Assembly (NCBI RefSeq): GCF_016859125.1
Contig: NZ_CP069338.1
Span: forward strand, 9,365,501-9,429,500
Origin: Archangium violaceum
GTDB lineage: Bacteria; Myxococcota; Myxococcia; Myxococcales; Myxococcaceae
Length of the DNA: 64,000 nucleotides
Reading direction: 5' to 3'
Shown here: piece after piece, positions 4,468-33,526 of the stretch
Layout of the letters: each line of letters opens with the position of its first letter
How positions within the stretch are numbered: position 1 is the first letter of the stretch
Program-made: the position numbers and the translations under genes
Notes under the pieces: generated by a model
Databases searched by the model: none
What the model saw: the letters and a program-made list of their open reading frames with translations, nothing else
Told to the model about the DNA's origin: nothing

Positions 4468-4746
4468 TCGGCGACTCCGGCGGTTGCGCCCGCATGGCAG
4501 GCATTCGCGCCAATCTGGATGGCGCCAATGCGGACCATGCAACAAAACGGCGCGGGCGGGGAATGGCGCGATGGCGTTTGCAACTGTGTGGCTGCATGGA
4601 AATTTTCCTGAAGTGGTGACGTGCCCATGGCAGCCAAGGGTTCGGATGCGCTTTCGCGCTTCAGGATCTGGGAATGTCGGAGTCATCTGTTAAGAAGGTG
4701 ATTGCAGTACTTCCAGCTTCTTGGATGATGAAAGATTGAGGTCTTG

Positions 4747-6720
4747 ATGAAGAACATCCGATTGGCATGTCTCGCCGTGAGCCTCGCGCTCGGCGCCACC
4801 GCGCAAGCCGCGGCGCCGGAGAGTGAAGCGGTGTGCAAGGCGTCACCCGCATCGCAGAGCATCAGGAAGGTGGGCGAGGAGGTGGTGTACCGCCTCGAGT
4901 CACCGCACCCGTACGCCGCGGCGGTGGATCAGCGCGCCAGGGGGGTGCTCCTCAGCGAGAAGCTCACCCACCCCGGGGCCTCGTACATCGCCCCGCACTT
5001 CGCCACGCTCGAGCTCGAGGAGGGGGACTACCTCGTCGTCCGTTCACCGGACGGCTCGCGCTCCTGGCGCTATGACAACGCGCACCCGGGCGCGCGCGAT
5101 GGCTTCTGGGCCATCCACATCCCCGGAGACACCGCCATCATCGAGCTGCACAGCAAGGCGGTGGACCGCCGCGGCGTGCTCAACAAGTACGGCTACCGCA
5201 TCGACAAGTACGCGCGCGGCTACACCGCGCAGGAGCTGGACAGCTCCGACTTCAGCACCAAGGCCCTGTGTGGCGCGGACGACTCCGGTTGGGCCCGGTG
5301 CTACGAGAGCAGCGAGGCTCAAATCTACAACCACTCCCGGGCCGTGGTGCGCCTGCTCATCAACGGCTCCAGCGCGTGCACCGGCTGGCTCGTGGGCAAC
5401 GAGGGCCACCTGCTGACGAACAACCACTGCATCAGCACGGCCACGGCAGCGCAGAACACCGATTACGAGTTCATGGCGGAGGGGAGCACCTGCTCCACCA
5501 GCTGCGCCTCGTGGGGCGCGTGCCCTGGCACGGTGGTGGCCACCAGCGCCACGCTCATCAAGACGGATGCCCCTCGGGACTACACGCTGCTGAAGCTGCC
5601 CAGCAACCCCTCCGGCACCTATGGCTTCCTCCAGCTGCGCCCCACCGGGGCGGTGGTGGACGAGCGCATCTACGTCCCCCAGCACCCGGCGGCGCACGGC
5701 AAGAAGATCGCCGTCACCTCCAGCGCCACGGCCGACGCCTCCGGCTACGCCGAGGTGTACAACCTCAACGCGGCGGCCTGCCAGAGCGGCGGCCCCAATG
5801 ACGTGGGCTACTACGCGGATACCCAGGGTGGCTCCTCGGGCTCGCCGGTGATTGGCTACGCCGACCACCAGGTGGTGGCGCTGCACCACTGCGCCAACTG
5901 CCCCAACCGTGGCGTGCCCATCCAGGAGGTCATCAGCCACCTGGGCAACAGCCTCCCGCAGTGCGCCCTCCGCAGCGAGGAGTGCCCGGACCCGTGGGGT
6001 GCCGACGGCGAGCCGCCGCCCCCGCCTCCTCCTCCGCCCCCGCCGCCTCCTGAGTCCTTCACCTATACCGCCACCAACACCAACAACGCCCAGCAGAACA
6101 CGACGGACAAGAGCCTGACTCTCGACGAGGGGGACGTGGTGGAGGTGGGCACCTGCAACCTCACCGGCGCCACCTCCTCCGGTGACACCTACCTGCGCCT
6201 GCTCGACACCTCGGGCGTTCAGGCCGCTTCCAACGACGACGCCTCCGGCTGCAGTGGCAACGCATCCTACTTCAAGTACACCGTGCCCACGGGCAAGGGG
6301 GGCACCTACACGATTCGCGCTGGCTGCTACTCCAGCGGCTCCTGCGGCGGCACCGTGGTCTGGAAGATCACCGCCGGTACCCCGCTGCCTCCCGCTCCCA
6401 CTACCGGCTCGTTCACCTACAGCGCCAGCAGCACCCAGAGCGCCTCTCGCAACACCACCAACCACGATGTGACGGTGGCCGCGGGACAGACGATCCAACT
6501 CGGCACCTGCACCGTGGCGGGCTCCTCCGGCAGCGGCGACACGTACCTGCGGCTCTACACCTCCGCCGGCACCCAGGTTGGCTCCAACGACGACTCGTGC
6601 AGCAGGCTCTCGTACCTGAGCTACACCGTTCCGGCGGGCGCGGGCGGCACGTACCAGATTCGCGCCGGCTGCTACTCCGACGGCAGCTGCAGCGGCACGG
6701 TGGCCTACACCATCCAGTAG
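4747..6720 (+). CDS. Secreted trypsin-like serine endopeptidase with two PPC domains
   Basis: A 657-residue exported protease. A signal peptide covers residues 1-22. The chymotrypsin-fold domain holds the probable triad His227 (TNNHC), Asp278 (PRDYTLL) and Ser364 (GGSSGSP, where Ser replaces the usual Asp before the nucleophile). It resembles lysyl endopeptidase / Achromobacter protease I. A run of about 13 prolines near residue 425 links to two tandem bacterial pre-peptidase C-terminal (PPC) beta domains, each about 100 residues with GDTYLRL and RAGCYS cores. The ATG at 4747 is preferred to the TTG immediately before it. A role in extracellular protein degradation or predation is inferred. 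A terminator follows. Confidence 0.88.
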   Translation: MKNIRLACLAVSLALGATAQAAAPESEAVCKASPASQSIRKVGEEVVYRLESPHPYAAAVDQRARGVLLSEKLTHPGASYIAPHFATLELEEGDYLVVRSPDGSRSWRYDNAHPGARDGFWAIHIPGDTAIIELHSKAVDRRGVLNKYGYRIDKYARGYTAQELDSSDFSTKALCGADDSGWARCYESSEAQIYNHSRAVVRLLINGSSACTGWLVGNEGHLLTNNHCISTATAAQNTDYEFMAEGSTCSTSCASWGACPGTVVATSATLIKTDAPRDYTLLKLPSNPSGTYGFLQLRPTGAVVDERIYVPQHPAAHGKKIAVTSSATADASGYAEVYNLNAAACQSGGPNDVGYYADTQGGSSGSPVIGYADHQVVALHHCANCPNRGVPIQEVISHLGNSLPQCALRSEECPDPWGADGEPPPPPPPPPPPPPESFTYTATNTNNAQQNTTDKSLTLDEGDVVEVGTCNLTGATSSGDTYLRLLDTSGVQAASNDDASGCSGNASYFKYTVPTGKGGTYTIRAGCYSSGSCGGTVVWKITAGTPLPPAPTTGSFTYSASSTQSASRNTTNHDVTVAAGQTIQLGTCTVAGSSGSGDTYLRLYTSAGTQVGSNDDSCSRLSYLSYTVPAGAGGTYQIRAGCYSDGSCSGTVAYTIQ

Positions 6721-6744
6721 GCCCTCCGCGCTTCATGGTTCAAT

Positions 6745-6780
6745 GACGGCGGCCCCGTTTTCGAGGTCGCCGTCTTCTTT
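6745..6780 (+). terminator. Rho-independent terminator after the protease gene
   Basis: GACGGCG at 6745-6751 pairs with CGCCGTC at 6768-6774, and two further GC pairs extend the stem. A T-rich TTCTTT tail follows. It lies 24 bases after the protease stop and before the ribosome-binding region of the next gene. Confidence 0.65.
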
Positions 6781-6820
6781 CCGGGTCATCCCTTTTTCAA
6801 TTCCTCGAGAGAACACATTC

Positions 6821-7951
6821 ATGAAGAGCGGATGGAAGCTGTCGATGATCGCGTTGTCCGCGCTCCTGCAGAGCGCGTGTGGGACCACCACGCTGTCGGA
6901 GGACGCTCCGGACGACGGAGCCGTGCCTCTCGCGGCCGCGGACTGCGCCGCCGGAAACACCGCGGCGCTCCAGGACCTCGGGGATGACGTACCGGACGGA
7001 ACGGGCACGCCGGTGACGGCGATGACCATCAAGAACGTGGGCGGCACGGGCTCGTACGAGCGCGTGACGCACATGGTTCCCGGAGTCTGGGGACAGGCTT
7101 GCCCCTCCAATGCGTGCCAGAAGGCAACCACGCCCGTGAGTGGCGCGCTCGCGCCTTTCAACGAGGAGCTGACGGTCAACTTCCGCGGACCGATGGAGCT
7201 GTATGACATCGCCGTCTACCGGCCGGACGCGAGCTCCTGGAAGCGGGTGTCCTCGTGGAACCGCTGCGGCTCCACGAACCTCACCTTCTTCAACAACCTG
7301 GGCGGCACGGGAAGCGGCGAGTGGACGCTGTGCGGTGGGAACAGTCAGAGCTATGCCTCCGCCGATGCGAAGACGGCCGTCGCGGCACCCACCCGCTTCA
7401 ACGGCACGCTCGAGAACCGGGTCGAGATGAACATCCTGTCGGACGAGCCCTGCAACGGTACGGGGGATGCGAGCGAGTGCGGCTTCTACCGGGGCGTGAC
7501 GCGTCACGGCTGGGCGGGTGCGAAGATCTTCGCCATCCGCGTCCGCATGCCGCGCTACACGGGGCCCATCACCGAATACTACGACGACGTGCCGGCCATC
7601 TGGATGCTCAACGCCCGCGTGGTACGCACCGCGCAGTATGGCTGCAACTGCCGGGGCATGGGTTCGCCCGGCGGCTGCGGGGAGCTCGACGTCGCCGAGG
7701 TCATCCACGGCGAACATCCGATGCATGCGACGAGCACCCTCTACTCGTTCGAAGGAGCGACCGGCAGCGGCCCCAACTACTTCATGCGCCCGGTGAAGGA
7801 GAGCGCGACCTTCATCGTCATCTTCGACGCGAGCGGGAAGGTGCAGATGCTGCGGCTGAGGCCCGACGCCTTCGACTTCGGTGACAGCGTGTCCAATGCG
7901 ACCGTCTCCACCTGGTTGGCGATGACGGGCCACACCATGTCGATGCCCTGA
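6821..7951 (+). CDS. Lipoprotein, TOS1-like (DUF2401) putative glycosyl hydrolase
   Basis: A protein of about 376 residues that starts at the ATG at 6821; upstream in-frame codons run through the terminator hairpin and are rejected. A lipobox (LLQSAC) near residue 22 predicts a lipoprotein. The body resembles the fungal cell-wall TOS1 family: an N-terminal GGTGSYERV-type region, then a C-terminal domain with NRVEMNI, ECGFYRG, HGWAGAK and an ELDVAE motif (Glu288, Asp290, Glu293). The ExDxxE pattern is like that of GH16-type beta-glucanases. This suggests an outer-surface enzyme acting on beta-glucan, perhaps of fungal prey. Substrate is inferred; the family match is from recall, not a search. 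Confidence 0.7.
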   Translation: MKSGWKLSMIALSALLQSACGTTTLSEDAPDDGAVPLAAADCAAGNTAALQDLGDDVPDGTGTPVTAMTIKNVGGTGSYERVTHMVPGVWGQACPSNACQKATTPVSGALAPFNEELTVNFRGPMELYDIAVYRPDASSWKRVSSWNRCGSTNLTFFNNLGGTGSGEWTLCGGNSQSYASADAKTAVAAPTRFNGTLENRVEMNILSDEPCNGTGDASECGFYRGVTRHGWAGAKIFAIRVRMPRYTGPITEYYDDVPAIWMLNARVVRTAQYGCNCRGMGSPGGCGELDVAEVIHGEHPMHATSTLYSFEGATGSGPNYFMRPVKESATFIVIFDASGKVQMLRLRPDAFDFGDSVSNATVSTWLAMTGHTMSMP

Positions 7952-8001
7952 GTCTCATGGGCGTCGTGTAGGAGGGGGGCGCAGCGGCAGTCCTTCCCAT
8001 C

Positions 8002-8631
8002 TCAGAATCTGTAGATGGCCGCGAGCCGGACGAGGGGCCGCACCGCCTCCCGCTTCTCGACGCGCGTCTCGCCCTGGGTCAGCAGACACGGTGTGAAGAG
8101 AATGCACCCCGGGGTGGGCGGCTCCACGGTCTCGCTCCGTGTCTGGCTGACGTCGGCGCCCGCGCCGAGCGATACGCGCCATTTCTCTCCGAGTGACTGG
8201 GAGTAGCCCAGGAGTCCACCGACGGACGTCCGGCTCCCGCTCGTCCGTTCGTCGCGCTTGAAGAACGTGCCTTCCGCCTGCAGGCCCAGGAAGAGGCCCT
8301 GGAACGGCTGGTTGCCGATATAGAGACGGCTTCCGGCCTGAAGGCCCGCGGCATTCATGCCCATGCCGAGGTGAAAGCCCCCGAACACCGTGAGGTGCGG
8401 CATCAAGGGGTGCTCCAGGTCCACGACAACGGCCGGCGCTTCGGGCGTGGTTGCCTCCACCGAGAGCGAATGGCTGCGCAGTCCGACGGCGAGCGCGCTG
8501 TGCGAGCGACTCGGGGGCGGAGCGGACTCCTCGGAAGTGGTCTCGCTCGGGGCGTCATCCTGGGCGAGCGCCAGGGCAGGGGCCGTGAGGAGGCTGGCGA
8601 AGGCGAGGAAACGAGAGGTGTACGGATTCAT
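8002..8631 (-). CDS. Predicted outer-membrane beta-barrel protein
   Basis: A protein of about 209 residues from the ATG at 8629-8631 (an in-frame start five codons upstream is possible). A signal peptide ends near ALALAQ, followed by an acidic Ser/Glu/Pro-rich linker. The rest shows alternating hydrophobic strands (LTVFGGFHLGMGMNAAGL, FLGLQAEGTFF, WRVSLGAGADVS) and ends in Phe (AAIYRF), as expected for an outer-membrane barrel recognised by BamA. The family is not recognised. A likely disulphide pair sits in the CILFTPC segment. It is transcribed towards the TOS1-like gene. Confidence 0.65.
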   Translation of the reverse strand: MNPYTSRFLAFASLLTAPALALAQDDAPSETTSEESAPPPSRSHSALAVGLRSHSLSVEATTPEAPAVVVDLEHPLMPHLTVFGGFHLGMGMNAAGLQAGSRLYIGNQPFQGLFLGLQAEGTFFKRDERTSGSRTSVGGLLGYSQSLGEKWRVSLGAGADVSQTRSETVEPPTPGCILFTPCLLTQGETRVEKREAVRPLVRLAAIYRF

Positions 8632-8759
8632 ATACCCGCGGCTCAATCAAGAAGCGTGCCCTGCGCAACCCCTTGGAAGAACGGAGTCCCGTCATATCGG
8701 GTGTGAACCAGGCCGCACACGTGTGTACCCTTCGACAGCAGGTGGGACCCGGCCTCGGT

Positions 8760-9899
8760 TCAACGTGCGGACTTCTCGGACAGCAACCGCACGTTGAGCG
8801 CGGCATTGCCGTAGAACTGGGTGTTGTTCCCGACGGAGTGTTTCTCGAGCCGGCGCTGGAGGTGGGGGTCGTAGCGGCCGAGCTTCATGAAGCCGTCGTT
8901 GAACCAGCCATCTCCACGTCCCGAGCCGTCGACGTATTGGGCGTACCGCTCGTCCGAGGGCCAGATGACGGAGTCGAGCGTCACGAGGAGGGCGCGGACA
9001 TCGTCGTCCGTCCATTCCACTCCCGCCTCATGCGCCTCGATGATGAACGCCACCACGGCGTTGCCGTGTGACACGTCCTGGCCGGGGCGGGAGTGGGAGC
9101 CCCATGCGTCGTTCCAGAAGGAGGCCGCTTCGTTGATGGGGCTGGAGACCAGTTGCTCACGCAGGGACGATGAGTGGTTCGGCAGACTCCGGTTGATGTT
9201 GTTGAGCACCTCCAGGTACCGGGCCTTGCGTGCCGCGTCGGTCGTCATGAGCGACAGGTTCATCGCGATGGCGGCCCAGTGCGAGGCCATGTGCGTGTTC
9301 TCCCGGTAGATGTGGATGTTCGCCCCTCGTTGAAGCCATTTCTCGAAAATGTCCATCTCCGAGAACTCCAGCAACCGATGGTACTGCGCGCGATACTTGT
9401 CATTGTTGTAGAGCGCGGGCGTCTCACGGATGACGCGCAGCAGGCGGGTCACGTAGCGCCAGCAGTAGCTCTCGTACAGCGGCACCTCCTGCCCCAGTGT
9501 ATCCGGATGCCGGGAGGCCCAGCCTCTGTACACGTCCTGGAATTGGCCTCCCTCGAGCGACCAGGAGTCCCTGGCCGTGCTGACGACATTGTTGACGTAG
9601 AGCAGGGCCCGGTCGAGGTATTGAACCTTTCCCGTGGCCCGGTACATGGCGGTGTTGCCATCAATGCCATAGGCGAGCTCGTAGAGCCGCCAGCTGTCGC
9701 GCGAAGTGCTCCCGGGCAGGAAGGTCATCGTATGCTCGAGGTCCCAATGGGCGAGGAACAGCCGCTCCCATTCGTCCACGGATTGGAGCCCGGGAGGCGC
9801 TGGCAGGTAGACGAAGCCCTGCTCGGCCCAGGTCCGAGGGGCACACGCCACTGAGACCAGGAGGGAGAGGAACACGATCCGGTGACGGGAGTCCAACAT
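8760..9899 (-). CDS. Exported protein of unknown function, probable alpha/alpha toroid
   Basis: About 379 residues from the ATG at 9897-9899, which gives a clear N-terminal signal (IVFLSLLVSVAC, possibly a lipobox, then TWA). The mature protein is rich in Trp, Tyr and His and is built of repeated helices (DSWRLYELAYGIDGNTAMYRA, ESYCWRYVTRLLRVIRE, ENTHMASHWAAIAMNLSL). This resembles the helical toroids of polysaccharide lyases and some glycosidases. No catalytic motif could be assigned with confidence. Neighbours are secreted enzymes, so a carbohydrate-active role is possible but unproven. Confidence 0.65.
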   Translation of the reverse strand: MLDSRHRIVFLSLLVSVACAPRTWAEQGFVYLPAPPGLQSVDEWERLFLAHWDLEHTMTFLPGSTSRDSWRLYELAYGIDGNTAMYRATGKVQYLDRALLYVNNVVSTARDSWSLEGGQFQDVYRGWASRHPDTLGQEVPLYESYCWRYVTRLLRVIRETPALYNNDKYRAQYHRLLEFSEMDIFEKWLQRGANIHIYRENTHMASHWAAIAMNLSLMTTDAARKARYLEVLNNINRSLPNHSSSLREQLVSSPINEAASFWNDAWGSHSRPGQDVSHGNAVVAFIIEAHEAGVEWTDDDVRALLVTLDSVIWPSDERYAQYVDGSGRGDGWFNDGFMKLGRYDPHLQRRLEKHSVGNNTQFYGNAALNVRLLSEKSAR

Positions 9900-10067
9900 G
9901 AAAGGTGTCCTGGATTGAGAAGCCGGCCACATGGTTGGGCGGATGATTCAACAACGCATCGCGTGCGCTCACGAAATGCCGTGACATGTGTGCAGAAGTT
10001 CAAGCATGTCCTTTCTCCACTCCACGGATTGTCGCACGGCGTGCGGCGACCTTGTCCCCGGAGGCAA

Positions 10068-12908
10068 TCAAAGCCATCCCGCGGATGGCGTCTGGGCGTT
10101 CGGAGCGAGCGCCCGGAGGGGCGTATCCCGGCCCAGCGCGATGAAGGGAGCCCAGTAATAGGGGTGGGGTTGGATCCTTCGCAGGGCGCGCATGGCCTCG
10201 CGCAGGGCCGCGGCCCGGCCCTTGCCGGCCAGCAGGTGGCGGTAGTAGTCCTCCATGAGTATCTGGGTGGTGGCGTCGTTGACCTTCCACAGGCTCGACA
10301 CCACCGTTTCCGCGCCCGCGGTGACGAGCGCGCGGCTCAGACCGTAGATGCCCTGCCCGAGCCTGACGTCGCCCCGGCCCGTGTCACACGCGGAGAGGAC
10401 GACGAGCTCCGTGCCCCACAGGTCGAGGCTGGCGAGCTCGAGCGCGGTGACCGGGGCGCTGGTGAGGACCAACCCGGAGCGGAGCAGCGGGTCGGAGGGA
10501 CGCCGTGGGGAAGGGCCTCTATCGGCGGCGCCGACCTGAATCAGGGCACGAGAGTCCGCGGGAGCCGCGGTGTTCTCCAGGAAGAAGCCATGGGTGGCGA
10601 TGTGGAGGATACCGGGTGCTTTCACCTGGAACAGGCGCTCCCTGGTCGCATCGTGGCCGAGGAAGAGCTGGGTCTGGGGGAGCAGGCGCTGGATGGCCAG
10701 GGCTTCCTGGCGGGTGCCCGGAAGAGGTGCCCAGGGGGAGCCGGTGCCCTGCGTGGCCTCGAAGGAGGGAGCCGCGAAGACGACGACCGAACGTGAAGGA
10801 GAGGGGCGCTGGGGGCGCGGCAACAGATCCCTGCCAGAGGTGAGGCGGGTGAAGTCGAAACGCTCGATGAGGAAGTCATGGCCATCATGGAGCGCGTGGA
10901 AGGGGACGAGACCGAGCTGGCCGTCTGGCGCGATGAAGAGACGGCGGACGTCGCCCAGGAGCGGCAGCAGCGGCCGGAACGCCAGGGAGTAGAGCGTCCG
11001 TGCATGGTGCTGGTAGGCGGCATCACGGCTGGAGAAGGCGTTGCACAGCTCCGTGGTGGCCAGGTCGATGGGCGCCGCGGGCCCCAGATCCAGGGCGCGG
11101 ATGCGTCCACTTGGGAAGAGCACCAGAGCCAGGTAGCGGAGCGGACCGGCGCTCTCCGCCCGGTGCGGCCCGGACTCGGGGATGAGCGGTCGGTGCGCGT
11201 AGGCGACGAGCTCGACGAGAGCCGCGTCCTGGGGGAGGGCGGCGGCGACACGCTCGACCATTTCAGCGGGAGGTGGAAGGGAAATGAGGGCACGCAGGGG
11301 TGCCGAGCGCCTGACGAGGCCGGTTTCGAGGATGTCTCCCTGGGAGGCAAGCTCCTCGAGGCGACGTTGGTATTCGGCTGGAGCAAGCGAGCCGGGGCCC
11401 TGGAGGGCCAACGTGGCGAGCTGGGAGCGAATGGCACGCAGTTGCTCGAGTTGCTCTCGGTCCTGGGCGCCGAGGCCGCGGTAGACGATGCGGGAGGTGT
11501 TGGAGGTCTCCTCGATGGAGCGTCCCTTGCGCAGCAGCACGGCGGTCAGCGCCAGGTGCCGCACACGCGCATCATCCGGATGGGCCCAGAGCAGGGAATA
11601 GAGGCGCTCTTCATCGGTGTGGAGGAATTGCAGCAGATGCAGCTGGCGGGATTCGGAGAGGTCGAGCGCCTCTTCGCGCAGGTATTCCTCGGAGAGGGTG
11701 AAGGCGCGCATGAAGAGCGGGATGGCGTCGGCGAGGCGGTCCTGGGCCAGACGAAGCCGGGCGAACTCGACGATCGTGTGGATGAGCTGGGGATGATTCC
11801 TACCGAGGGTTGCTTCGCGAATGGCGAGCGCACGCCTGTAGAGGGGCTCGGCCCGCGCGTACAGTCTCCGATTCCTGCAGAGGGTGGCGAGGTTGTCGAG
11901 AACGGCGGCAACCGTGGGGTGGTGCTTGCCGAGAGACGTCTCCCAGATGGTGAGTGCACGCTTGTAGAGGGGCTCGGCTCGCGCGTACGACCCGCGAGCG
12001 GCGTAGAGGAGGCCGAGGTTGTTGTACGTGTGGCCGACATCGGGATGGTTCTTGCCGAGGGCTGCTTCGCGAATGGCGAGCGCACGCTTGTAGAGGGGCT
12101 CGGCCCGAGCGTACGCGCGTTGGTAGTAATGGACGCTCGCCAGGTCGTTGAGGGTGGAGGCCACATCGGGGTGGTGCTGGCCCAGGGACACTTCCCGGAT
12201 GGCGAGGGCGCGCTCGAGGAGCGGCTCGGCTCGGGCGTACTGCTTCTGATTCCTGTAGAGCAGCGCGAGCGTGTTGAGTGAGGCGGCGACCTGGGGATCA
12301 TTCCCGCCGAAAGCCGCTTCCTGGATGGCGAGCGCACGCTGAACGAGCGGCTCGGCCTGACCGTACGATCCCTGCTCTTGATAGGCACTGGCGAGGCTGA
12401 TGAGTGTCTGGGCCAGGTCGGGATGGTGTTTGCCAAGAGCTGTCTCTCGAATGGAGAGCGCTCGTTCATGGAACTGGGTGGCCTGACCGTACGCGCCCTG
12501 GATGCCAAGGAGGACGCCGAGGCTGTTGAGCGTTCGAGCGACGTCGGGATGGTTCCCGCCAAGAGTTCTCTCCTGGATGGCGAGGGCGCGCTCGAGGAGC
12601 GGTCTGGCACGGGTGGTATCCCTTGGATGCAGGTAGAGGTCGCCCAGCTGACTCAGGCTGGTCGCCACCTCGGGATGCTCGCCGCCCAGCACGGCCTCTC
12701 TCAATGTGAGCGCATGTTGGCTCCGCCTGAGGGCCTCGGTGTATTGGCCGGCCGCTTGGAGCTCGTTGGCTTCGTCGAACGCCGCCTGCGCCTCCAGCAG
12801 CCTCGCCTCCGCTCGCACCTCGCCGGCCGCCACGTTCGCCGTGCAGCACAGGACGGCCAATATCATCCATCCGAGCGAGCGCCACATGTCATTCATCCAG
12901 GAGCCCAT
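10068..12908 (-). CDS. TPR-CHAT protein (caspase-like peptidase) with N-terminal signal or anchor
   Basis: About 946 residues from the ATG at 12906-12908; starts at 12896 and 12887 are alternatives. The open frame continues upstream only by chance through decayed genes. Order: a hydrophobic segment (WMILAVLCCTANVA), about ten kinesin-light-chain-type TPRs with 42-residue spacing (residues about 60-480), a helical region, then a C-terminal CHAT domain. The caspase-type dyad is visible as His773 in ATHGFF and Cys841 in LSACDTGRG. CHAT proteases are caspase and separase relatives that cleave partner proteins; TPRs usually bind the trigger or substrate. An export signal on such a protein is unusual. 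No partner gene is adjacent. Confidence 0.88.
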   Translation of the reverse strand: MGSWMNDMWRSLGWMILAVLCCTANVAAGEVRAEARLLEAQAAFDEANELQAAGQYTEALRRSQHALTLREAVLGGEHPEVATSLSQLGDLYLHPRDTTRARPLLERALAIQERTLGGNHPDVARTLNSLGVLLGIQGAYGQATQFHERALSIRETALGKHHPDLAQTLISLASAYQEQGSYGQAEPLVQRALAIQEAAFGGNDPQVAASLNTLALLYRNQKQYARAEPLLERALAIREVSLGQHHPDVASTLNDLASVHYYQRAYARAEPLYKRALAIREAALGKNHPDVGHTYNNLGLLYAARGSYARAEPLYKRALTIWETSLGKHHPTVAAVLDNLATLCRNRRLYARAEPLYRRALAIREATLGRNHPQLIHTIVEFARLRLAQDRLADAIPLFMRAFTLSEEYLREEALDLSESRQLHLLQFLHTDEERLYSLLWAHPDDARVRHLALTAVLLRKGRSIEETSNTSRIVYRGLGAQDREQLEQLRAIRSQLATLALQGPGSLAPAEYQRRLEELASQGDILETGLVRRSAPLRALISLPPPAEMVERVAAALPQDAALVELVAYAHRPLIPESGPHRAESAGPLRYLALVLFPSGRIRALDLGPAAPIDLATTELCNAFSSRDAAYQHHARTLYSLAFRPLLPLLGDVRRLFIAPDGQLGLVPFHALHDGHDFLIERFDFTRLTSGRDLLPRPQRPSPSRSVVVFAAPSFEATQGTGSPWAPLPGTRQEALAIQRLLPQTQLFLGHDATRERLFQVKAPGILHIATHGFFLENTAAPADSRALIQVGAADRGPSPRRPSDPLLRSGLVLTSAPVTALELASLDLWGTELVVLSACDTGRGDVRLGQGIYGLSRALVTAGAETVVSSLWKVNDATTQILMEDYYRHLLAGKGRAAALREAMRALRRIQPHPYYWAPFIALGRDTPLRALAPNAQTPSAGWL
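11760..12720 (-). repeat. Tandem 126-base repeats encoding TPR units
   Basis: Near-identical blocks recur every 126 bases inside the TPR-CHAT gene, for example the recurring GCGCGCTCG/GCGCACGC followed by GGCTCGGC about 30 bases on. Each encodes one 42-residue unit containing ALAIRE and HPDVA cores. The high DNA-level identity suggests recent duplication or homogenisation, and unit number may vary between strains. Confidence 0.8.
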
Positions 12909-13073
12909 GGCCTGAAGTACCAGGGAGATGTCTGATTCTACTGTGATGGTCCTCACTGGCTTCGTATGAGATCGCTCACGAATAGGAGCCGGGTGGTGTC
13001 TGTTCTCTGAATCCCGGCGTGCTGCTGGCATTGACGCGTCAATGACGTGTCCAATGCTCGCGGTTCTCTGGCG

Positions 13074-13545
13074 ATGAGCGACGAAGAGCAGACAGCGATT
13101 CTCGACGAGCGCGGCCGGAGCCGGCCCGCTGCTGGTGGCTCCGCGGGGTCGTGGGAGGAGCCTGGCCGCACTCCCATCACCACCCCGGGCATCCTCCCTG
13201 GTGAGCGGCGTTCGCTCGAGGTGGGGATGTGGGTGACGGGCCGCTACCACACCGGGGGTTGCTGGGCGAGGGCGGCATGGGCCGCATCTGGCTCGTCGAG
13301 GACGTGTAGGAGCAGCGCCGCGTTGAAGGAGATGCAGGTCCCCGCGGGTCTGCCGCCCAACAAGGTCGAGGAGCTCGTGCTGATGTTCCGCCACGAGTTC
13401 TTCGCGATGAAGCGGCTCCAGGGCACGCTGGAGTACCTCGCCCCCGAGTGGCAGCGCGGCGCCAGCATCGATGGGCGCGCGGACCTCTACTCGCTGGGGG
13501 TGCTGGCCTTCTTCCTGGCCACGCGCCAGCTGTCCTTCAAGGGGG
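13074..13545 (+). pseudogene. Decayed serine/threonine protein kinase
   Basis: Fragments of one kinase survive in different frames. An N-terminal linker begins at the ATG at 13074 (MSDEEQTAILDERGRS) and runs to WVTGRYH. A frameshift moves the glycine-rich loop LLGEGGMGRIWLVEDV into another frame that ends in TAG. Then ALKEMQVPAGLPPNKVEEL resumes in the first frame. The catalytic loop (HRD) and DFG are missing: the sequence jumps from FFAMKRLQ to the activation-segment end GTLEYLAPEW, then GRADLYSLGVLAFFL. At least one frameshift and one internal deletion make it non-functional. It abuts the remnant of an unrelated gene. Confidence 0.8.
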
Positions 13546-13561
13546 AAACTGTCTCCCCGGG

Positions 13562-13870
13562 TCAGCGCAGCGCAGGGTAGTCCGTGTAGCCCTTCTCCTC
13601 GCCACTGTAGAGGGTGGAGAAGTCCGCCGTGTTGAGCGGGGCCTCGCGCCGGAAGCGCTCCGGCAGGTCTGGATTGGCGATGAACGGCACGCCGTAGGCC
13701 ACGAGCTCGGCCCGCCTCCCGGGCGTTCTCGGCCGCGCGCCGGAACTGCTCGACGATGCCGGGAATATCTCGTCGGTCGCGAGCGCTCGCGGCGTCACCA
13801 TGCGCGTCTTTCCCTTGAAGGTGAAGACCTCCCCGTCGACGGATTGCTCCAGGCGCGTACCGGCGGCAGA
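13562..13870 (-). pseudogene. Decayed Old Yellow Enzyme-type alkene reductase, C-terminal remnant
   Basis: The minus strand keeps the family C-terminus: ELVAYGVPFIANPDLPERF, then APLN and GYTDYPAL just before the stop. The preceding part, IPGIVEQFRRAAENAREAG, lies in a different frame, and a third piece (FTFKGKTRMVTPRAL) switches back. This is the signature of a frameshifted NemA/xenobiotic-reductase-like flavoprotein that has also lost its N-terminal two thirds. It ends head-on against the kinase remnant at about 13560, so one deletion or rearrangement may have destroyed both. Confidence 0.8.
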
Positions 13871-14100
13871 ACGACCAGACTCGCGCTCTTCGCTGAGTCG
13901 TCCACGCCTTGTTGCCTCGCGGGCAACGGATTGGGCGGGTGATATGAAATCCTGACAGTCCTTGCCCATGTCTTGTTGCTTCGCGAGCAACAGATTGAGA
14001 GGGTGGGACGACGGAATTCGCTGTCGTGAATGCGAGGAATTGACGGGATTCCGCGAGGTCTGTACGGTGACTGCCAAACCCGCGGACATGGGAGTCGAAC

Positions 14101-14499
14101 ATGAGGAGCTTCCTGCTCATCCTGGCAGCGTTTGTCGTATCTGGTTGTGGAGGGACGGAGTTCGAGCCCGGCGAGGACTTGCTGGCGCGAAGCGAGAGTG
14201 CCCTCGTCACCTGTTCGACGAGCTGCGCGAACGGAAACACCATCTCCTGTCAGGGGACGACCTGCTCCGCATCGGATGGCAATCATGTGACGTGTGATGG
14301 CACCGCTCAGTACTGCGGGCTCACGCCGGCGCCCATCTGCTCCTCGAGCAGCTCGTGCACGAATCTCAATGGGCAGTCGTGCTCGCTCCCTGGCTCCACG
14401 CGCAGCTGCTGTGTCGGCAGTTCCGTCGCGGGGACCTGCTCCTGCACCAGCACGAGGAAGTGGCGGTGCCTCTCCCTGCAGGATCCCGGGCTGCGATAG
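14101..14499 (+). CDS. Small cysteine-rich lipoprotein
   Basis: A 132-residue protein with a clear lipoprotein signal (MRSFLLILAAFVVSGCGG; lipobox VSGC). The mature part is short, Ser/Thr-rich and holds about 16 cysteines in closely spaced pairs (CSTSCANG, SCCVGSS, CSCTS), suggesting a disulphide-stabilised surface protein. No family is recognised. The C-terminus (KWRCLSLQDPGLR) is less typical and could reflect drift near the stop. It follows the decayed region, and about 180 bases without a recognisable gene separate it from the next stop. Confidence 0.6.
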   Translation: MRSFLLILAAFVVSGCGGTEFEPGEDLLARSESALVTCSTSCANGNTISCQGTTCSASDGNHVTCDGTAQYCGLTPAPICSSSSSCTNLNGQSCSLPGSTRSCCVGSSVAGTCSCTSTRKWRCLSLQDPGLR

Positions 14500-14679
14500 C
14501 CTGTAGTCCAGGCTCCTGTGAGAACGCTCTTCCCGGCGGAGCGGATGTCGCGCTATGGCACGGTGACCCCGGGGCGCCCCCTCCAGCGCATGCGGGCTCC
14601 GAGCATAACGCTGCGAACGTCGATCTCCGCACGCACCGGGTGGAGACCCTCTCACCGTGGTTCGACCACCACGTTCCCT

Positions 14680-15351
14680 TCACGGTGCACGGCCTCTGGG
14701 TTCCAGGTACTCGAGGAGGGATGCGGGCGGGCGGATGCCCTCGCGCAACTCCGGAGCGGGCACGAGCGGAAGTGGCATGAGCCGCAGCGGGAGCACTCCC
14801 GCCCAGCAATCCAGTGACAGATCCTCCTCGTCGTCGCGAGGTGGTCCGGTGCGGATCTTCGCCGAGGCCTCCTCCAGCGGCAGCCGAAGCACGGACGTCG
14901 CCTTCAACTCCTGGCCATTGGGTGGGCGCACCTCGGCCCAACGGCCGCGCAGGGCATGGTTCGTGATGGCCTCCAGTGCTCGGGTCTTCTCCGCGTCGTC
15001 CGTCACCAGCGACGCCGTGCCCAGCACCATCACCGAGCGGTAGTTCGCGCTGTGGTGGAACGCGGAGCGCGCCAGGACGAGCCCGTCCAGCAGCGTCACC
15101 GTGAGGCACACCGGCACGCCCTGGGAGAGCTGCCGGGCGAGCCGGCTCACCGAGGCGCCGTGCAGGTACAGGTTTCGTCCGATGCGTCCGTACACCATGG
15201 GGAGCACGTACGGTTGGCCCTCCACCGCCACTCCCACGTGAGCCACGAGGCCCTCGTCGAGGATGGCGTGGATGACGGGCTCCTCGTAGGAGGCGCGCTG
15301 TGGGAGGCGGCGGACGGTCCCTCGTTCACTGGGCGGGGTGGGTGTGTTCAT
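14680..15351 (-). CDS. PPOX-fold flavin-binding protein (NimA-like pyridoxamine oxidase family)
   Basis: About 223 residues. The first 150 match the FMN split-barrel family (RRLPQRASYEEPVIHAILDE, LPMVYGRIGRNLYLHG, VCLTVTLLDGLVLARSAFHH, RSVMVLG). Such proteins bind flavin, heme or pyridoxal derivatives. The start is the ATG at 15349-15351; the ATG at 15361-15363, closer to a GGAGAG, is an alternative. It is divergent from a MocR-type PLP-binding regulator, a pairing often seen for vitamin B6-linked genes, and the intervening 12-base inverted repeat is the likely operator. The actual reaction is unknown. Confidence 0.8.
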   Translation of the reverse strand: MNTPTPPSERGTVRRLPQRASYEEPVIHAILDEGLVAHVGVAVEGQPYVLPMVYGRIGRNLYLHGASVSRLARQLSQGVPVCLTVTLLDGLVLARSAFHHSANYRSVMVLGTASLVTDDAEKTRALEAITNHALRGRWAEVRPPNGQELKATSVLRLPLEEASAKIRTGPPRDDEEDLSLDCWAGVLPLRLMPLPLVPAPELREGIRPPASLLEYLEPRGRAP

Positions 15352-15371
15352 GCGTCTCTTCATCTCTCCGG

Positions 15372-15418
15372 ACTGGTCCATCCAACAGGCCCAGTTCCGA
15401 CAAATCGGATGGACCAGT
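15372..15418. promoter_or_regulatory. Inverted-repeat operator for the divergent MocR / PPOX promoters
   Basis: ACTGGTCCATCC at 15372-15383 is a perfect inverted repeat of GGATGGACCAGT at 15407-15418, with a 23-base spacer. The spacer also contains CCCAGTTCC, a direct repeat of the CCAGTTCC that extends the right arm. Mixed direct and inverted GGACCA-type boxes are typical of GntR/MocR binding sites, and the position between the two divergent starts fits. Confidence 0.65.
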
Positions 15419-15446
15419 TCCCGCGATCCGAGGCAGGCTCCCCACC

Positions 15447-16937
15447 ATGAAGGGCTGGGACCTGACGCTCGATCTCCGCGCACCCTCTCCAACGCCTCTC
15501 TTCGTGCGCATCGCCCGCGCGCTGGAGGACGACATCCGTCGCGGCCGGCTCCCTCCCGGGGCCCCGCTGCCCGGAAGCCGCACCCTGGCCGAGTCCCTGG
15601 GCGTGCACCGCAACACCGTGCTCGCCGCGTACCGGGAGTTGGAGACGCAGGGGTGGATCACCACCTCGGCGGCTCGGGCCACCTACGTCTCTCCCTCGCT
15701 TCCAGACGTGCCCGCGCATCCCTCCGCCGGAGCCCCCCGTCCGGACATGCCCTCGCACGTGGGCTTCCCGCTGCCTTCCGCGCCCCTGCGCCGTGAGTAC
15801 CCCACGCCTCCGCGTGGCACGCTCGTCCTCGCGGGAGGTGTTCCCGATGTCCGGCTCGTCCCCGCTTCCGTCCTGGCTCGTGCCTACCGTCGCGCGCTGA
15901 AGCTCGATGGCAAACGCCTGCTCGACTATGGCGATCCGAGTGGCCACCCGCGCCTCCGTTCCGCGCTCGCCGGAATGCTCTCCTCCCTGCGAGGGCTCGC
16001 CGTCCGCGCGGACGATCTGATCATCACCCGGGGAAGTCAGGGGGCGTTGGATCTGGTGGCGCGCACCCTGCTACGGCCCGGGGACACCGTGGTGGTGGAG
16101 GCGATCGGCTACCGTGCCGCCTGGAATGCGCTCCAGCTCGCCGGGGCCCGTCTCGTGCCCGTGCCGGTGGATGGCGAGGGCCTGCGGGTGGACGCGCTCG
16201 AGGCGCTCTCCCGTCGCTCGCCGGTGCGCGCGGTGTACCTCACGCCCCACCACCATTACCCCACCACCGTGACGCTCTCTCCGGCGCGGCGGCTCGCGCT
16301 GCTGGCGTGGGCTCGCACGCATCGCGTGGCCCTCATCGAGGACGACTACGATCACGAGTTCCACTACGAGGGCCGTCCCGTCCTACCGCTGGCGAGCGCG
16401 GACCGGGACGGGCTGGTGCTGTACGTGGGCACGTTGTCCAAGGTGCTGGCTCCGGCCCTGCGCCTGGGTTTCCTGGCCGCGCCGCGCCCCTTCCTGGAGC
16501 GAGCCCTCGGGGTGCGCGAGGCGGTGGATCGGCAGGGGGACTCCGTGCTGGAGGCCGCCGTGGCCGAGCTGCTGGAGGAGGGCGAAGTGCAGCGCCACGT
16601 CCGCAAGATGCGCGGCGTCTACCACGACCGGCGCGACGCCCTCGTGCGTGCGCTGGAGCGGGAGCTGGCGGGCGCGCTCACCGTTTCGCCTCCCGCGGGG
16701 GGTATGGCCTTGTGGGCGCACTGTGCTCCGGGTGTGGATGCCGATGCCTGGGCTCGCGCGGGGCTGGAGGCGGGCGTGGCCTTCGTCCCGGGAGGTGCCT
16801 TCACCTTCGACAGGCGTCCCATACCCACGGTGCGGCTGGGCTTCGCCTTCCTCGAGGAGTCCGAGCTCGCCGAGGCCGTGCGGCGCATGGCTCGAGCCCT
16901 CTCCAATACACTCCGAGTCAAACGCGCCCAATTATGA
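15447..16937 (+). CDS. MocR-family transcription regulator with aminotransferase domain (PdxR-like)
   Basis: A 496-residue two-domain protein. Residues about 1-75 form a GntR winged helix (PLFVRIARALEDDIRRGRLP, then GVHRNTVLAAYRELETQGW). Residues about 120-490 form a fold-type-I aminotransferase-like domain with the ITRGSQGALDL motif, EDDYDHEF (pyridine-ring Asp) and the PLP lysine in YVGTLSKVL. MocR proteins sense PLP or related amines and control a neighbouring gene. Here the divergent PPOX-fold gene is the obvious target, plus autoregulation. The ATG at 15447 is chosen because upstream codons would run through the operator. PdxR-type function is an inference. Confidence 0.88.
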   Translation: MKGWDLTLDLRAPSPTPLFVRIARALEDDIRRGRLPPGAPLPGSRTLAESLGVHRNTVLAAYRELETQGWITTSAARATYVSPSLPDVPAHPSAGAPRPDMPSHVGFPLPSAPLRREYPTPPRGTLVLAGGVPDVRLVPASVLARAYRRALKLDGKRLLDYGDPSGHPRLRSALAGMLSSLRGLAVRADDLIITRGSQGALDLVARTLLRPGDTVVVEAIGYRAAWNALQLAGARLVPVPVDGEGLRVDALEALSRRSPVRAVYLTPHHHYPTTVTLSPARRLALLAWARTHRVALIEDDYDHEFHYEGRPVLPLASADRDGLVLYVGTLSKVLAPALRLGFLAAPRPFLERALGVREAVDRQGDSVLEAAVAELLEEGEVQRHVRKMRGVYHDRRDALVRALERELAGALTVSPPAGGMALWAHCAPGVDADAWARAGLEAGVAFVPGGAFTFDRRPIPTVRLGFAFLEESELAEAVRRMARALSNTLRVKRAQL

Positions 16938-30061: not shown

Positions 30062-30856
30062 TTAGTGCGTCAGGCGCACGTCGAAGCCGAGCCCCGCATG
30101 GATCGTCAACGCGAAGCGCTGGTAGGCCTCGTCGCCAATGAGGAAGTAGTCCGCTCCCACGTCCACCAGCGCGACGAAGCCGGCCGGTAGCGAGAGCCTG
30201 CCGCCCACCACCGCGCCGGCGCCATAGCCTCCCGCGCTGGGGTTGAGGGTGGCGCGTACGCCCATGAAGGGCCGCAGGCCGCCCCGGCCCGGCACGAGCC
30301 CTCCCTGGAGATGAAAGGCCGGAGGGCCTCCGAGCCACACGTGGGCTCCGCCCTCCCACAGGCCCCGGTAGAAGGAGAGCCCCGCGCCCGGTCTCCACAC
30401 GCGATTCAGGGGCTCGACGAGCGCCAGGGCCTCCATCCGCAGGACGATCGCCCCGCGCGCCCGCTCCAATGCCTGGCGTTCGCGAAGCGCCGCCTGCTCC
30501 GCCGCGTACAGCTTCTCGGCTTCCACCCGCTCACGGATGCCCTCCGCGAGGGCGACCAACTCGGGGGGGAAGCGGACGGGATCCACCCTCATCCCGGGGT
30601 GCTCACGCGCGAGCGCCTCGAGCTGCTGCTGGACCCGGTCCGCATATCCGAGCACATGCAGGGAGGCGGCCAGGTACATGCGCGCCAGCCCCCGCTCCTC
30701 GGCGGGACGCTCCGGCCCCGCCAGCACCCGCTCACAGGCCCGGACCGCCGCCTCGTACTGTCCGTTTTCATAGAGGCCGCTGCACGACGGCGTCTCGGCG
30801 CGTACGGCCCGGGGCAGGAACAACAGCACCACGACGGCGAGGACGCGCGGGCTCAT
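30062..30856 (-). CDS. Exported protein coupled to a Ser/Thr kinase (helical repeats plus beta region)
   Basis: A 264-residue protein with signal peptide (MSPRVLAVVVLLFLPRAVRA). Residues 25-135 resemble TPR-like helices (CSGLYENGQYEAAVRACERV), then a coiled Glu/Arg-rich segment. The last 110 residues alternate as membrane beta strands (AGLSFYRGLWEGGAHVWLG, VALVDVGADYFLIGD). It may sit in the outer membrane. The ATG overlaps the stop of the kinase gene (ATGA), so the two are made together. Such kinase-linked TPR exported proteins are common in myxobacteria; the exact role is unknown. Confidence 0.7.
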   Translation of the reverse strand: MSPRVLAVVVLLFLPRAVRAETPSCSGLYENGQYEAAVRACERVLAGPERPAEERGLARMYLAASLHVLGYADRVQQQLEALAREHPGMRVDPVRFPPELVALAEGIRERVEAEKLYAAEQAALRERQALERARGAIVLRMEALALVEPLNRVWRPGAGLSFYRGLWEGGAHVWLGGPPAFHLQGGLVPGRGGLRPFMGVRATLNPSAGGYGAGAVVGGRLSLPAGFVALVDVGADYFLIGDEAYQRFALTIHAGLGFDVRLTH

Positions 30857-32694
30857 GGCAGGGGGGAGGCCATTTCGAGGGGTTCGAGTTGGGTGGTGTA
30901 GGTCAGGGTTTCGCTCGGGGAGATGACGATCTTCTGCCGGTGGGGCTTGATGCCGGGATTGCGCAGCTCGAGCTCATGCTCGCCCGCGGTCAACACGTAA
31001 CGGTGCAGGGGTGGCACCCGCCCGAGCATCTCTCCATCCACCCAGACATGGGCCCAGGCGCCCTTGACGGTGAGGTAGAGCGTTCCCGTGGTGCTCGTCA
31101 CCGGGGGCTCCCGGGTGGCCTGGTCCCTGGCGGGCGGAACGGCGGGCCGTGGGGCGGGTGACTCCCCGGTGGAGCCCGTCACGACGCGCGCGGGAGTCTG
31201 GCGGGGCGTCTTCCTCGCCACGAGGGGAGGGGACTTCGCCGGGGCGGACGCCTCCGGGCGCGGCGAGGACGCTTCCGGGGTGGACCGGGGCTCGGGCTCG
31301 GGCGTGACGGCGGCGGGCAGTGGGTCCGCCGGAGCGGGAGCGGGGCGCTCTCCGGCCACGGCCGGCACCTGTGCCACCGGCGCCACGGAGGAAGGTCCGC
31401 GGCCCAGAAGCGAGACTCCCCCGAGCGAGAGGACCAGCAGGCCGCCCGCCATCAGGCCCTGACTCCAACGCGCACCTCGCGCGGGCGGGGGCTGGTGCTC
31501 CCGCACCAGGGGCGTTGGCGTCGCCAGGGACTGCATGGGCGTTGGTGTCGCCAGGGACTGCATGGGCGTTGGCGTCACGGGGGGCTTCTGGTGCTCACCG
31601 GAGGGGGACCCGGAGTCAGCGGACGGCCCCTGGAGGGTCGCGTCCTCCAGGAAGGCGAGGGCGGGGGCGGGCTTCACCTCGTCGAGGGAGGGCGAAGGCT
31701 TGCCGCTGGTGCTCCCGGGCCCCTCCTGCTCCTGGAGCAGGGCCCTCATCTCCCGGGCCACCTCGCTGGCCGAGCCCGGACGTTGCCAGGGCTCCTTGGC
31801 GAGCAACTGGAGGACGAGATCATCGAGCCGGTGAGGCAACACCACGTAGGAAGAAGGTCTGATCGCCGGGCTCTTCAGGTGATGGGCCACGATCTCCATG
31901 GAGGAACGACCCGGGAAGGGCCTCCGCCCGGTCAACATCTCGAAGGCGATGACGCCCACCGCGTACAAGTCGGTCCGGGGGCTCACCGCTTCGCTCAGGG
32001 CCTGCTCCGGAGCCATGTAGTGGGGCGTGCCGACGATCAGATCCGAGCGTGTCTGGGACGCGGTGCCATCGGGCTGGGTGCTGTGCTTGGCGAGCCCGAA
32101 GTCGAGCACCTTGACGAGCTCCGTGCCGTCCACCTCCCGCACGACGAAGATGTTGCTCGGCTTGAGATCGCGGTGGATGACGCCCCGGGCATGGGCGGCC
32201 GAGAGCGCATCGAGCACCTCGCCGAGCAACTCCACGACCCGGGCGGGCGGCAGGGGGGCGCACCGCGCGATGACGTGGCTGAGCGGCTCGCCTTCGAGGT
32301 ACTCCATGACGAGGTACTGGCCGATGCCCGGCTCCTGGCCGATGCCGAAGACGTCGATGATGCCGCGGTGTTGGATGGAGCCCGCGGCCCGGGCCTCGGC
32401 CAGCAGATTCCTCGCGTGGGGGCTCCGGGCGTGATCCTCACGCAGCAGCTTGAGAGCCACCCTGCGGCCGATGGTCACGTGCTCGGCCTCGTAGACGACG
32501 CCCATGCCCCCGCGGCCGATGCACCGGAGCACCCGGTACTCGCCGAGCCGCTGACCCACGAGCGCGTCATCCTCCGCCGTGGGCAGCGCGTCCTCCGGTA
32601 ACTCCAAGAGGGGGCCGTGCAGAGGGCACGCCACCGCCCCCGGAGGCAGGGAGTTGCCGCAGCTCGGACAGGAACGAGAGGCAGGCGGGCTCAT
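30853..32694 (-). CDS. Serine/threonine protein kinase with PEGA-type C-terminal domain
   Basis: 613 residues from the ATG at 32692-32694. Order: an N-terminal zinc-ribbon-like CPSCG...CPLHG segment, then a Hanks-type kinase domain (residues about 54-330) with GRGGMG loop, Lys82, HRDLKPSN (Asp176), DFG (Asp198) and APE, so it looks catalytically complete. A Pro/Thr-rich linker with short tandem repeats leads to one predicted transmembrane segment (LMAGGLLVLSLGGVSLLG). The C-terminal part carries a PEGA-like beta domain (TLYLTVKGAWAHVWVDGEML). The coupled downstream exported protein may be part of the same signalling unit. Confidence 0.9.
   Translation of the reverse strand: MSPPASRSCPSCGNSLPPGAVACPLHGPLLELPEDALPTAEDDALVGQRLGEYRVLRCIGRGGMGVVYEAEHVTIGRRVALKLLREDHARSPHARNLLAEARAAGSIQHRGIIDVFGIGQEPGIGQYLVMEYLEGEPLSHVIARCAPLPPARVVELLGEVLDALSAAHARGVIHRDLKPSNIFVVREVDGTELVKVLDFGLAKHSTQPDGTASQTRSDLIVGTPHYMAPEQALSEAVSPRTDLYAVGVIAFEMLTGRRPFPGRSSMEIVAHHLKSPAIRPSSYVVLPHRLDDLVLQLLAKEPWQRPGSASEVAREMRALLQEQEGPGSTSGKPSPSLDEVKPAPALAFLEDATLQGPSADSGSPSGEHQKPPVTPTPMQSLATPTPMQSLATPTPLVREHQPPPARGARWSQGLMAGGLLVLSLGGVSLLGRGPSSVAPVAQVPAVAGERPAPAPADPLPAAVTPEPEPRSTPEASSPRPEASAPAKSPPLVARKTPRQTPARVVTGSTGESPAPRPAVPPARDQATREPPVTSTTGTLYLTVKGAWAHVWVDGEMLGRVPPLHRYVLTAGEHELELRNPGIKPHRQKIVISPSETLTYTTQLEPLEMASPLP
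31509..31577 (-). repeat. 27-base tandem repeats in the kinase linker
   Basis: Units at 31509-31535 and 31536-31562 differ by one base, and a partial third unit follows to about 31577. They encode repeats of MQSLATPTP in the kinase juxtamembrane linker. The period is a multiple of three, so copy-number change would alter linker length without frameshift. Confidence 0.85.
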
Positions 32695-33480: not shown

Positions 33481-33526
33481 CTGCTGCGCCTGCGGGTGCG
33501 TTGAGCCCCGTGGATGGCCGCCGGGA

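What the first reader, a model, noticed from the sequence alone, without database searches (positions are those of the whole stretch)
10068..12908. Exported-looking TPR-CHAT caspase-like protein with homogenised repeats
CHAT proteases normally act in the cytoplasm, yet this one starts with a signal-like hydrophobic segment. About ten 42-residue TPRs are nearly identical at DNA level, so unit number may vary and alter binding. The His773/Cys841 dyad is intact.
Basis: partly seen in the sequence, partly recalled or inferred. Interest (0 to 1): 0.52.

Follow-up and report, generated by a model that had tools for sequence, protein, structure and literature searches.

The report
Exported TPR-CHAT caspase-like protease, myxobacterium
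A bacterium of the myxobacterial group makes a caspase-like protease that appears to be sent out of the cytoplasm, and its relatives suggest it is one arm of a membrane-spanning alarm system rather than a one-off oddity with copy-cat repeats.

Summary
The gene is real: 10068-12887 (-), signal-like segment, kinesin-light-chain-type TPRs, CHAT domain (Pfam E 2e-74) with His773/Cys841 (numbering from 12908). An AlphaFold2 model (pLDDT 87.8) resembles the TPR-CHAT protease Csx29 (Z up to 27) and separase (Z 24). Three points of the finding change. (1) The repeats are not near-identical: 8 complete units, 47-73% DNA identity, each closest to a unit in another protein. (2) Unit number varies between species: the same-genus relative aligned lacks exactly seven units, in register; strains were not testable. 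(3) Export is not odd here: 21 of 23 near relatives (2.6 in shuffles) and 51 of 72 distant ones (11.8) have signal-like N-termini. New: 15 of 49 copies in 8 genomes lie within 10 kb of a gene for an ADYC-domain protein (0.57 expected), in several loci with a kinase-nSTAND1-TM-FGE gene. This genome keeps four such kinase/ADYC pairs elsewhere; one kinase is 78% identical to those beside the nearest relatives. Most likely it is an extracytoplasmic effector protease of a transmembrane STAND receptor system, here detached from its operon. Export is well supported by sequence; the partnership is inferred.

The parts
10068..12887 (-).
   Evidence: ORF; start matched to MWRALGWM / MRRALGWM of the nearest relatives and to the sequence upstream of their starts
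12825..12887 (-). signal-peptide-like segment MWRSLGWMILAVLCCTANVAA, likely cleavage VAA|GE
   Evidence: heuristic rule met; conserved in position in relatives; cleavage site is inference
12678..12803 (-). N-terminal partial TPR (residues 36-77, numbering from 12908)
   Evidence: HMM built from the complete units hits from residue 47; the borders of the part are by register
11670..12677 (-). eight complete 42-residue TPR units of kinesin-light-chain type (residues 78-413)
   Evidence: fixed 42-residue spacing, TPR_12/TPR_10, helices in the model
11007..11669 (-). linker region, mostly helical, between TPR and CHAT (residues 414-634)
   Evidence: model secondary structure; nearly invariant RKGR in the alignment
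10131..11006 (-). CHAT protease domain (residues 635-926)
   Evidence: Pfam PF12770 E 2.2e-74; separase and Csx29 fold matches
10590..10592 (-). catalytic His773 codon
10386..10388 (-). catalytic Cys841 codon

Best explanation
The gene encodes an exported caspase-like protease. The N-terminal segment takes the protein across the inner membrane. The kinesin-light-chain-type TPR superhelix binds a regulator or substrate peptide, and a change in the TPR/linker region aligns the His773/Cys841 dyad, as in Csx29. Recurrent partners in this clade are a membrane receptor (cytoplasmic Ser/Thr kinase and nSTAND1 NTPase, one transmembrane helix, outer FGE/C-type-lectin-like domain) and a secreted ADYC-domain protein. 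So the CHAT protein probably works outside the cytoplasm as the proteolytic arm of a trans-envelope sensing system against invaders or neighbours. In this genome the CHAT gene has become separated from its operon and would act in trans with the kinase/ADYC pair near 3.48 Mb. Shown by computation: domains, dyad, conserved signal-like N-termini, fold, neighbourhood enrichment. Inferred: actual export, partnership, activation, biological role.
For: Domains and dyad; dyad columns invariant in 66 aligned sequences, query included, and intact in the query and the 23 near relatives checked. Signal-like N-termini in 21 of 23 and 51 of 72 relatives against 2.6 and 11.8 in shuffles; a like rule was met by kinase-like neighbours 0 of 9 and neighbour ORFs overall 66 of 220. 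Model pLDDT 87.8, pTM 0.83; Csx29 Z 23-27, separase protease Z 24.4 at rmsd 3.6 over 308 residues. Neighbourhood: an ADYC-family gene and a large kinase gene beside CHAT, all on one strand, in 8 of the 20 relative loci fetched (Pfam on part of them); ADYC within 10 kb of 15 of 49 copies, at 12 separate places, in 8 genomes against 0.57 expected. A hydrophobic helix lies between the nSTAND1 and FGE regions in 12 of 12 kinase proteins, and the 15 ADYC proteins inspected have hydrophobic N-terminal segments. The window protein groups with three relatives, all operon-linked. This genome's L162 kinase is 78.5% and 77.7% identical to the kinases beside two of them.
Against: The window copy has no ADYC gene near it (one search finds four in the genome, none in the window) and no kinase-STAND-FGE gene beside it, only a kinase fragment. 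Of 49 copies in the 8 genomes, 34 have no ADYC within 10 kb, and 39 of 53 ADYC genes have no such CHAT copy within 10 kb, so independent roles are possible. The operon label is scattered on the tree: 6 changes, 16 of 500 shuffles as low. The signal-peptide rule is a home-made heuristic, not SignalP; two near relatives, L120 (7991-10037) and L123, miss its threshold, and the query's n-region has one Arg. No interaction, cleavage or localisation data exist in any call.
Confidence: 0.5

Rival explanations
1. An exported TPR-CHAT protease that works alone at the envelope or outside the cell (protein turnover, predation, development), with no fixed tie to the kinase/ADYC operons.
For: 34 of 49 copies lack an ADYC gene within 10 kb; the window copy has none; no gene close to the window CHAT gene recurs in the 20 relative loci.
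Against: Fifteen of 49 against 0.57 expected is far above chance, and the three nearest relatives of the window copy are all operon-linked.
Confidence: 0.3
2. A cytoplasmic CHAT protease whose hydrophobic N-terminus is an artefact of start choice.
For: Three in-frame ATGs lie within 24 bases, and the sequence before them in the window shows no strong ribosome site by eye.
Against: The hydrophobic segment is conserved in position: the rule is met in 21 of 23 near relatives against 2.6 in shuffles, and relatives start just before it.
Confidence: 0.07
3. A hypervariable repeat array that changes length quickly within the species and retunes binding.
For: Unit number ranges from 1 to 20 in the near relatives, and the query and its relative in G004 differ by exactly 294 residues, seven units, in register.
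Against: Units are only 47-73% identical in DNA and 60% on average against 55% for random synonymous codons; each of 8 units has its best match in another protein, so length changes are probably old in this copy.
Confidence: 0.06
4. A pseudoprotease or scaffold in which CHAT binds but does not cut.
For: No activity has been shown for this clade in any call.
Against: His and Cys are invariant in 66 aligned sequences and in the 24 rows checked, query included.
Confidence: 0.07

Closest known systems
Csx29, the TPR-CHAT protease of type III-E CRISPR (Craspase)
   Same: TPR followed by CHAT with a His/Cys dyad; long fold match (Z 23.2-27.3; rmsd 4.2-8.3 over 518-608 residues).
   Different: Only 12-15% identity in those matches, no Cas family among the neighbours scanned, and a signal-like N-terminus. 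Csx29 works with Cas7-11 on Csx30 (passages of PMC10028731).
Separase protease domain
   Same: CHAT-type fold, Z 24.4 at rmsd 3.6 over 308 residues.
   Different: Separase is a eukaryotic cohesin cleaver (recalled); 15% identity.
STAND NTPase-FGS (FGE-sulfatase domain) conflict systems of multicellular bacteria
   Same: The partner genes of relatives carry nSTAND1 plus FGE, an architecture proposed as invader sensing (passages of PMC10907252 and PMC8195603).
   Different: Here the effector is a separate, exported TPR-CHAT protein with an ADYC protein and a transmembrane receptor; the window locus itself lacks the STAND-FGE gene.
Kinesin light chain TPR domain
   Same: 42-residue TPR type; 38% identity and rmsd 2.0-2.2 over 239 residues.
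   Different: A eukaryotic cargo adaptor with no protease domain (recalled).

Membership tests
CHAT protease family (PF12770) | profile match over the curated cut-off | tested here: met
   250.9 bits, cut-off 24
CHAT protease family (PF12770) | His/Cys catalytic dyad | tested here: met
   H773, C841; invariant in 66 sequences
CHAT protease family (PF12770) | caspase/separase-like fold | tested here: met
   model ma9f8ce71ea41; separase and Csx29 matches
CHAT protease family (PF12770) | proteolytic activity | not testable with these tools
   needs an assay
Type III-E CRISPR TPR-CHAT (Csx29) | encoded with Cas7-11 and Csx30 | tested here: not met
   no Cas family in the 7 neighbour ORFs scanned in 4744-16937; wider surroundings not scanned
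Type III-E CRISPR TPR-CHAT (Csx29) | TPR + CHAT fold arrangement | tested here: met
STAND-FGS conflict system | STAND NTPase with FGS domain encoded next to the effector, at the window locus | tested here: not met
   none among the neighbours; the four best matches to the kinase-STAND-FGE protein in this genome lie elsewhere
STAND-FGS conflict system | same, in relatives | tested here: met
   8 of 20 relative loci carry members of the kinase and ADYC clusters; nSTAND1 and FGE confirmed by Pfam in 5 of those 8 kinase proteins (L119, L120, L123, L129, L131), the other three only by clustering
Exported protein (Sec signal peptide) | n-, h- and c-region at the N-terminus | tested here: met
   heuristic with shuffled and neighbour controls; no SignalP available
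Exported protein (Sec signal peptide) | found outside the cytoplasm | not testable with these tools
   needs fractionation
Lipoprotein | lipobox before a Cys | tested here: not met
   query reads AVLCC with no G/A/S before Cys; motif rule recalled; some relatives (L127, L128, L040) have better candidates

The most novel reading that the evidence does not exclude
Myxobacteria, and probably Acidobacteriota and Cyanobacteria, run caspase-like proteolysis outside the cytoplasm. In myxobacteria an exported TPR-CHAT protease and a secreted ADYC protein form the outer half of a receptor whose membrane-spanning partner couples a lectin-like FGE sensor to a cytoplasmic nSTAND1 switch and Ser/Thr kinase. 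This would be a trans-envelope inflammasome-like system for detecting neighbours, prey or phage at the surface. The protease gene is readily shed from, and recruited to, the operon, and its TPR length changes in whole-unit steps.
Probability: 0.25. Interest if true: 0.75.

Novelty: new variant of a known kind. Interest (0 to 1): 0.42.

Why it matters
The best-studied CHAT protease, Csx29, acts inside the cell (recalled; no call tested the rest of the family). A large exported branch, tied in some loci to transmembrane STAND-FGE receptors, would place caspase-like cleavage at the bacterial surface. It would also give a concrete, testable partner set (kinase-STAND-FGE, ADYC, TPR-CHAT) for conflict systems that are so far mostly predicted from sequence.

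Tried and rejected
Homogenised repeats: rejected on unit identities, a synonymous-codon null and cross-protein best matches. True near-identical arrays do occur elsewhere in the family: 15 of 92 proteins with three or more units have a pair at 90% or more (the query is one of the 92 and not of the 15).

A different C-terminal half in paralogues: one search listed many matches ending near query residue 325, which looked like domain swaps. tblastn on L026-L038 showed split alignments of relatives that cover the CHAT part as well.

Dyad loss: a regular expression flagged L129 and L132 (Cys motif) and L133 and L135 (His motif). The alignment shows that His and Cys are present in all four and only neighbouring residues differ.

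Kinase remnant at 13047-13580 as a decayed operon kinase: not adopted. It has a weak Pkinase match (E 2.6e-6, below the cut-off), lies divergent to the CHAT gene, and its affinity to any kinase subfamily was not tested.

Local conservation: no gene close to the window CHAT gene recurs in the 20 relative loci; two window genes about 18-21 kb away (a kinase, 30853-32838, and 32839-33531) do cluster with genes of some of those loci. A CHAT remnant beside the four kinase/ADYC loci of this genome was sought and not found at E 1e-3. Promoter and terminator scans gave 0 promoter-like sites and 1 terminator-like site, as in shuffles (0.2 and 0.9).

Known-family scans: PADLOC at E 0.001 matched the protein only to a TPR model; NCBIfam gave no match over a cut-off.

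Papers: 'ADYC domain' gave 0 papers, 'TPR-CHAT' with 'signal peptide' 0. One search listed 9 papers, mostly on CRISPR systems. The titles and abstract openings listed showed nothing on exported CHAT; listings only, capped, and only the held open-access library. The PDB search with the CHAT part alone gave weak Csx29 hits (E 0.066-0.17).

Rows dropped: split pieces of one gene were merged and 16 rows at 66 bits or less were left out of the 49; two of them lie within 10 kb of an ADYC gene. In some searches, ORFs under 600 aa, with no TPR hit, or open at the 5' end were left out, ORFs under 200 aa. The 20 relative loci were nearly all the best matches, so 8 of 20 is a biased sample; the 8-genome count is the fairer one, though its 15 copies sit at only 12 places. 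The kinase cluster is single-linkage and also holds other kinases (one is a histidine kinase). A1 used 65 of the 85 relative stretches prepared.

Full report
What is there. The ORF on the minus strand ending at 10068 encodes a 946-residue protein if read from 12908. Pfam gives kinesin-light-chain-type TPRs (TPR_12, TPR_10) and a CHAT domain at residues 635-926 with E 2.2e-74. His773 and Cys841 sit in ATHGF and SACDTG. The ORF stays open upstream to 14243, but the nearest relatives have MWRALGWM or MRRALGWM at this place, and the bases before that Met resemble those before the third ATG here. The better start is therefore 12887.

The repeats. There are eight complete 42-residue units and a partial one. 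Pairwise DNA identity is 47-73% over 28 pairs, and TRF sees 69% over 3.5 copies. Mean unit identity is 59.7% against 55.1 +/- 0.8% for the same residues with randomly drawn synonymous codons, a faint trace of common origin. All eight units match a unit of some other protein (among 23 near relatives) better than any sibling. This array is therefore not homogenised. In 15 of 92 family proteins with three or more units at least one pair reaches 90%; the clearest, L097 from Nostoc sp. FACHB-110, averages 96%.

Unit number. An HMM built from the query's units counts 9 in the query, 2 in L119 and in the first L120 protein, 1 in L123, and 7 to 20 in the other near relatives (L039, L040 and L119-L138). 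Against L119, the query has an extra 294 residues, exactly seven units, with the break in register. Unit number thus changes in whole steps between species. The direction is open: L031, next out in the tree, matches only from residue 388, while the other near relatives are long. One genome per species is held, so strains could not be compared.

Export. A simple rule (start codon, net charge not negative with at least one K/R, hydrophobic 12-mer, small-residue cleavage motif) was met by 21 of 23 near relatives (2.6 in shuffles) and 51 of 72 more distant ones (11.8 in shuffles); the two near misses, L120 (7991-10037) and L123, have a similar but slightly less hydrophobic segment. By group with a fresh shuffle: near relatives 21 of 23 (2.8), Acidobacteriota 17 of 22 (4.4), Cyanobacteria 31 of 45 (6.7), other Myxococcota/Deltaproteobacteria 2 of 3 (0.4), other 1 of 2 (0.4). 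The phylum labels are mine, from record titles. A like rule was met by 66 of 220 neighbour ORFs, which include truly secreted proteins, and by 0 of 9 kinase-like ORFs. Two of seven distant relatives scanned also carry a PPC domain, which I recall as typical of secreted proteins. Export is thus probably a family trait here, not an exception.

Fold. AlphaFold2 on a 66-row alignment gave pLDDT 87.8 and pTM 0.83. Foldseek and VIA-align place it with Csx29 (Z 23-27) and separase (Z 24.4, rmsd 3.6 over 308 residues); the TPR part matches kinesin light chain 1 (Z 25.6, rmsd 2.0-2.2 over 239). Csx29 is switched on allosterically through its TPR domain, which re-aligns the dyad (passages of PMC10028731). 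That is my model for activation here, by analogy only. Dyad geometry in the model was not measured.

Neighbours. No gene close to the window CHAT gene recurs in 20 loci of relatives. Among those loci, 8 of 20 have, on the same strand as CHAT, an ADYC-family gene and a large kinase gene. Pfam was run on five of the eight kinase proteins and each has Pkinase, nSTAND1 and FGE-sulfatase domains. Pfam was run on three of the eight loci's ADYC proteins, and further ones lie at ADYC family-search hits. A hydrophobic helix sits between the nSTAND1 and FGE regions in 12 of 12 such proteins, four of them from this genome (mean hydropathy 1.57-2.15; 9 of 12 over the first threshold of 1.7). The FGE part is therefore probably outside and the kinase inside. 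The 15 ADYC proteins inspected have hydrophobic N-terminal segments (for one, L165, a longer stretch was searched). In 8 near-complete genomes, 15 of 49 TPR-CHAT copies, at 12 places, have an ADYC gene within 10 kb against 0.57 expected by random placement (maximum 4 in 2000 trials). The other 34 do not, and 39 of 53 ADYC genes have no such CHAT copy within 10 kb.

This genome. It has one copy of this TPR-CHAT type and seven other CHAT genes. Three of the latter share an open frame with an nSTAND1-region match and are probably fusions. It has four ADYC genes, each beside one of the four best matches to the kinase-nSTAND1-FGE protein. The one at 3.48 Mb (L162) is 78.5% and 77.7% identical to the kinases next to the CHAT genes of L120 and L119; the other three are near 45-47%. 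In the tree the window protein groups with L119 and L120 (95/78) and then L123 (96/92), all operon-linked. The simplest reading is that the window copy belongs to the L162 receptor but now lies 5.9 Mb away. No CHAT remnant was found beside L162. The operon label is otherwise scattered on the tree (6 changes; 16 of 500 shuffles as low), so recruitment and loss look frequent; rows L026-L038 in that tree were not checked for neighbours.

Known background. STAND-FGS systems have been proposed as invader sensors in multicellular bacteria, with FGS as a lectin-like sensor and peptidases among the effectors (passages of PMC8195603; passages of PMC10907252, which also discuss periplasmic placement of some such sensors and a DGR target with CHAT). 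I found no paper on the ADYC domain or on TPR-CHAT with a signal peptide in the held library. PADLOC matched this protein only to a TPR model; the partner's listed PADLOC matches (25 of 33 shown) fall in its kinase domain or just beyond it.

Verdict. An exported TPR-CHAT protease is well supported by sequence. The trans-envelope partnership is a good hypothesis from neighbourhoods and matching subfamilies, not a demonstration. The homogenised-repeat claim is wrong. I rate it a new variant of a known kind.

Noticed in passing
L120:7992-18138: In genome G006 two TPR-CHAT genes, with 2 and 9 TPR hits, flank a kinase-nSTAND1-FGE gene and an ADYC gene in one run of same-strand genes.
   Followed up: partly
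L097:43-2920: A TPR-CHAT gene of Nostoc sp. FACHB-110 has eight TPR units averaging 96% DNA identity, a real near-identical array.
   Followed up: no
G000 at 2.62, 3.16 and 4.86 Mb (L140, L144, L142): Three of the other seven CHAT genes of this genome lie in the same long open frame as an nSTAND1-region match, so they look like CHAT-nSTAND1 fusions.
   Followed up: no
window 13047-13580 (+): Fragment of a protein kinase gene, divergent to the CHAT gene, apparently a remnant.
   Followed up: partly
window 8760-9932 (-): 390-residue protein downstream of the CHAT gene on the same strand, hydrophobic N-terminus, no Pfam match; no relative in the 20 loci compared.
   Followed up: partly
window 4744-6720 (+): Trypsin-like peptidase with a signal-like start and a below-cut-off PPC match, a second likely secreted protease near the CHAT gene.
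   Followed up: no
G000, whole genome: 148 matches to the kinase-nSTAND1-FGE protein, mostly through the kinase domain: a large kinase complement.
   Followed up: no
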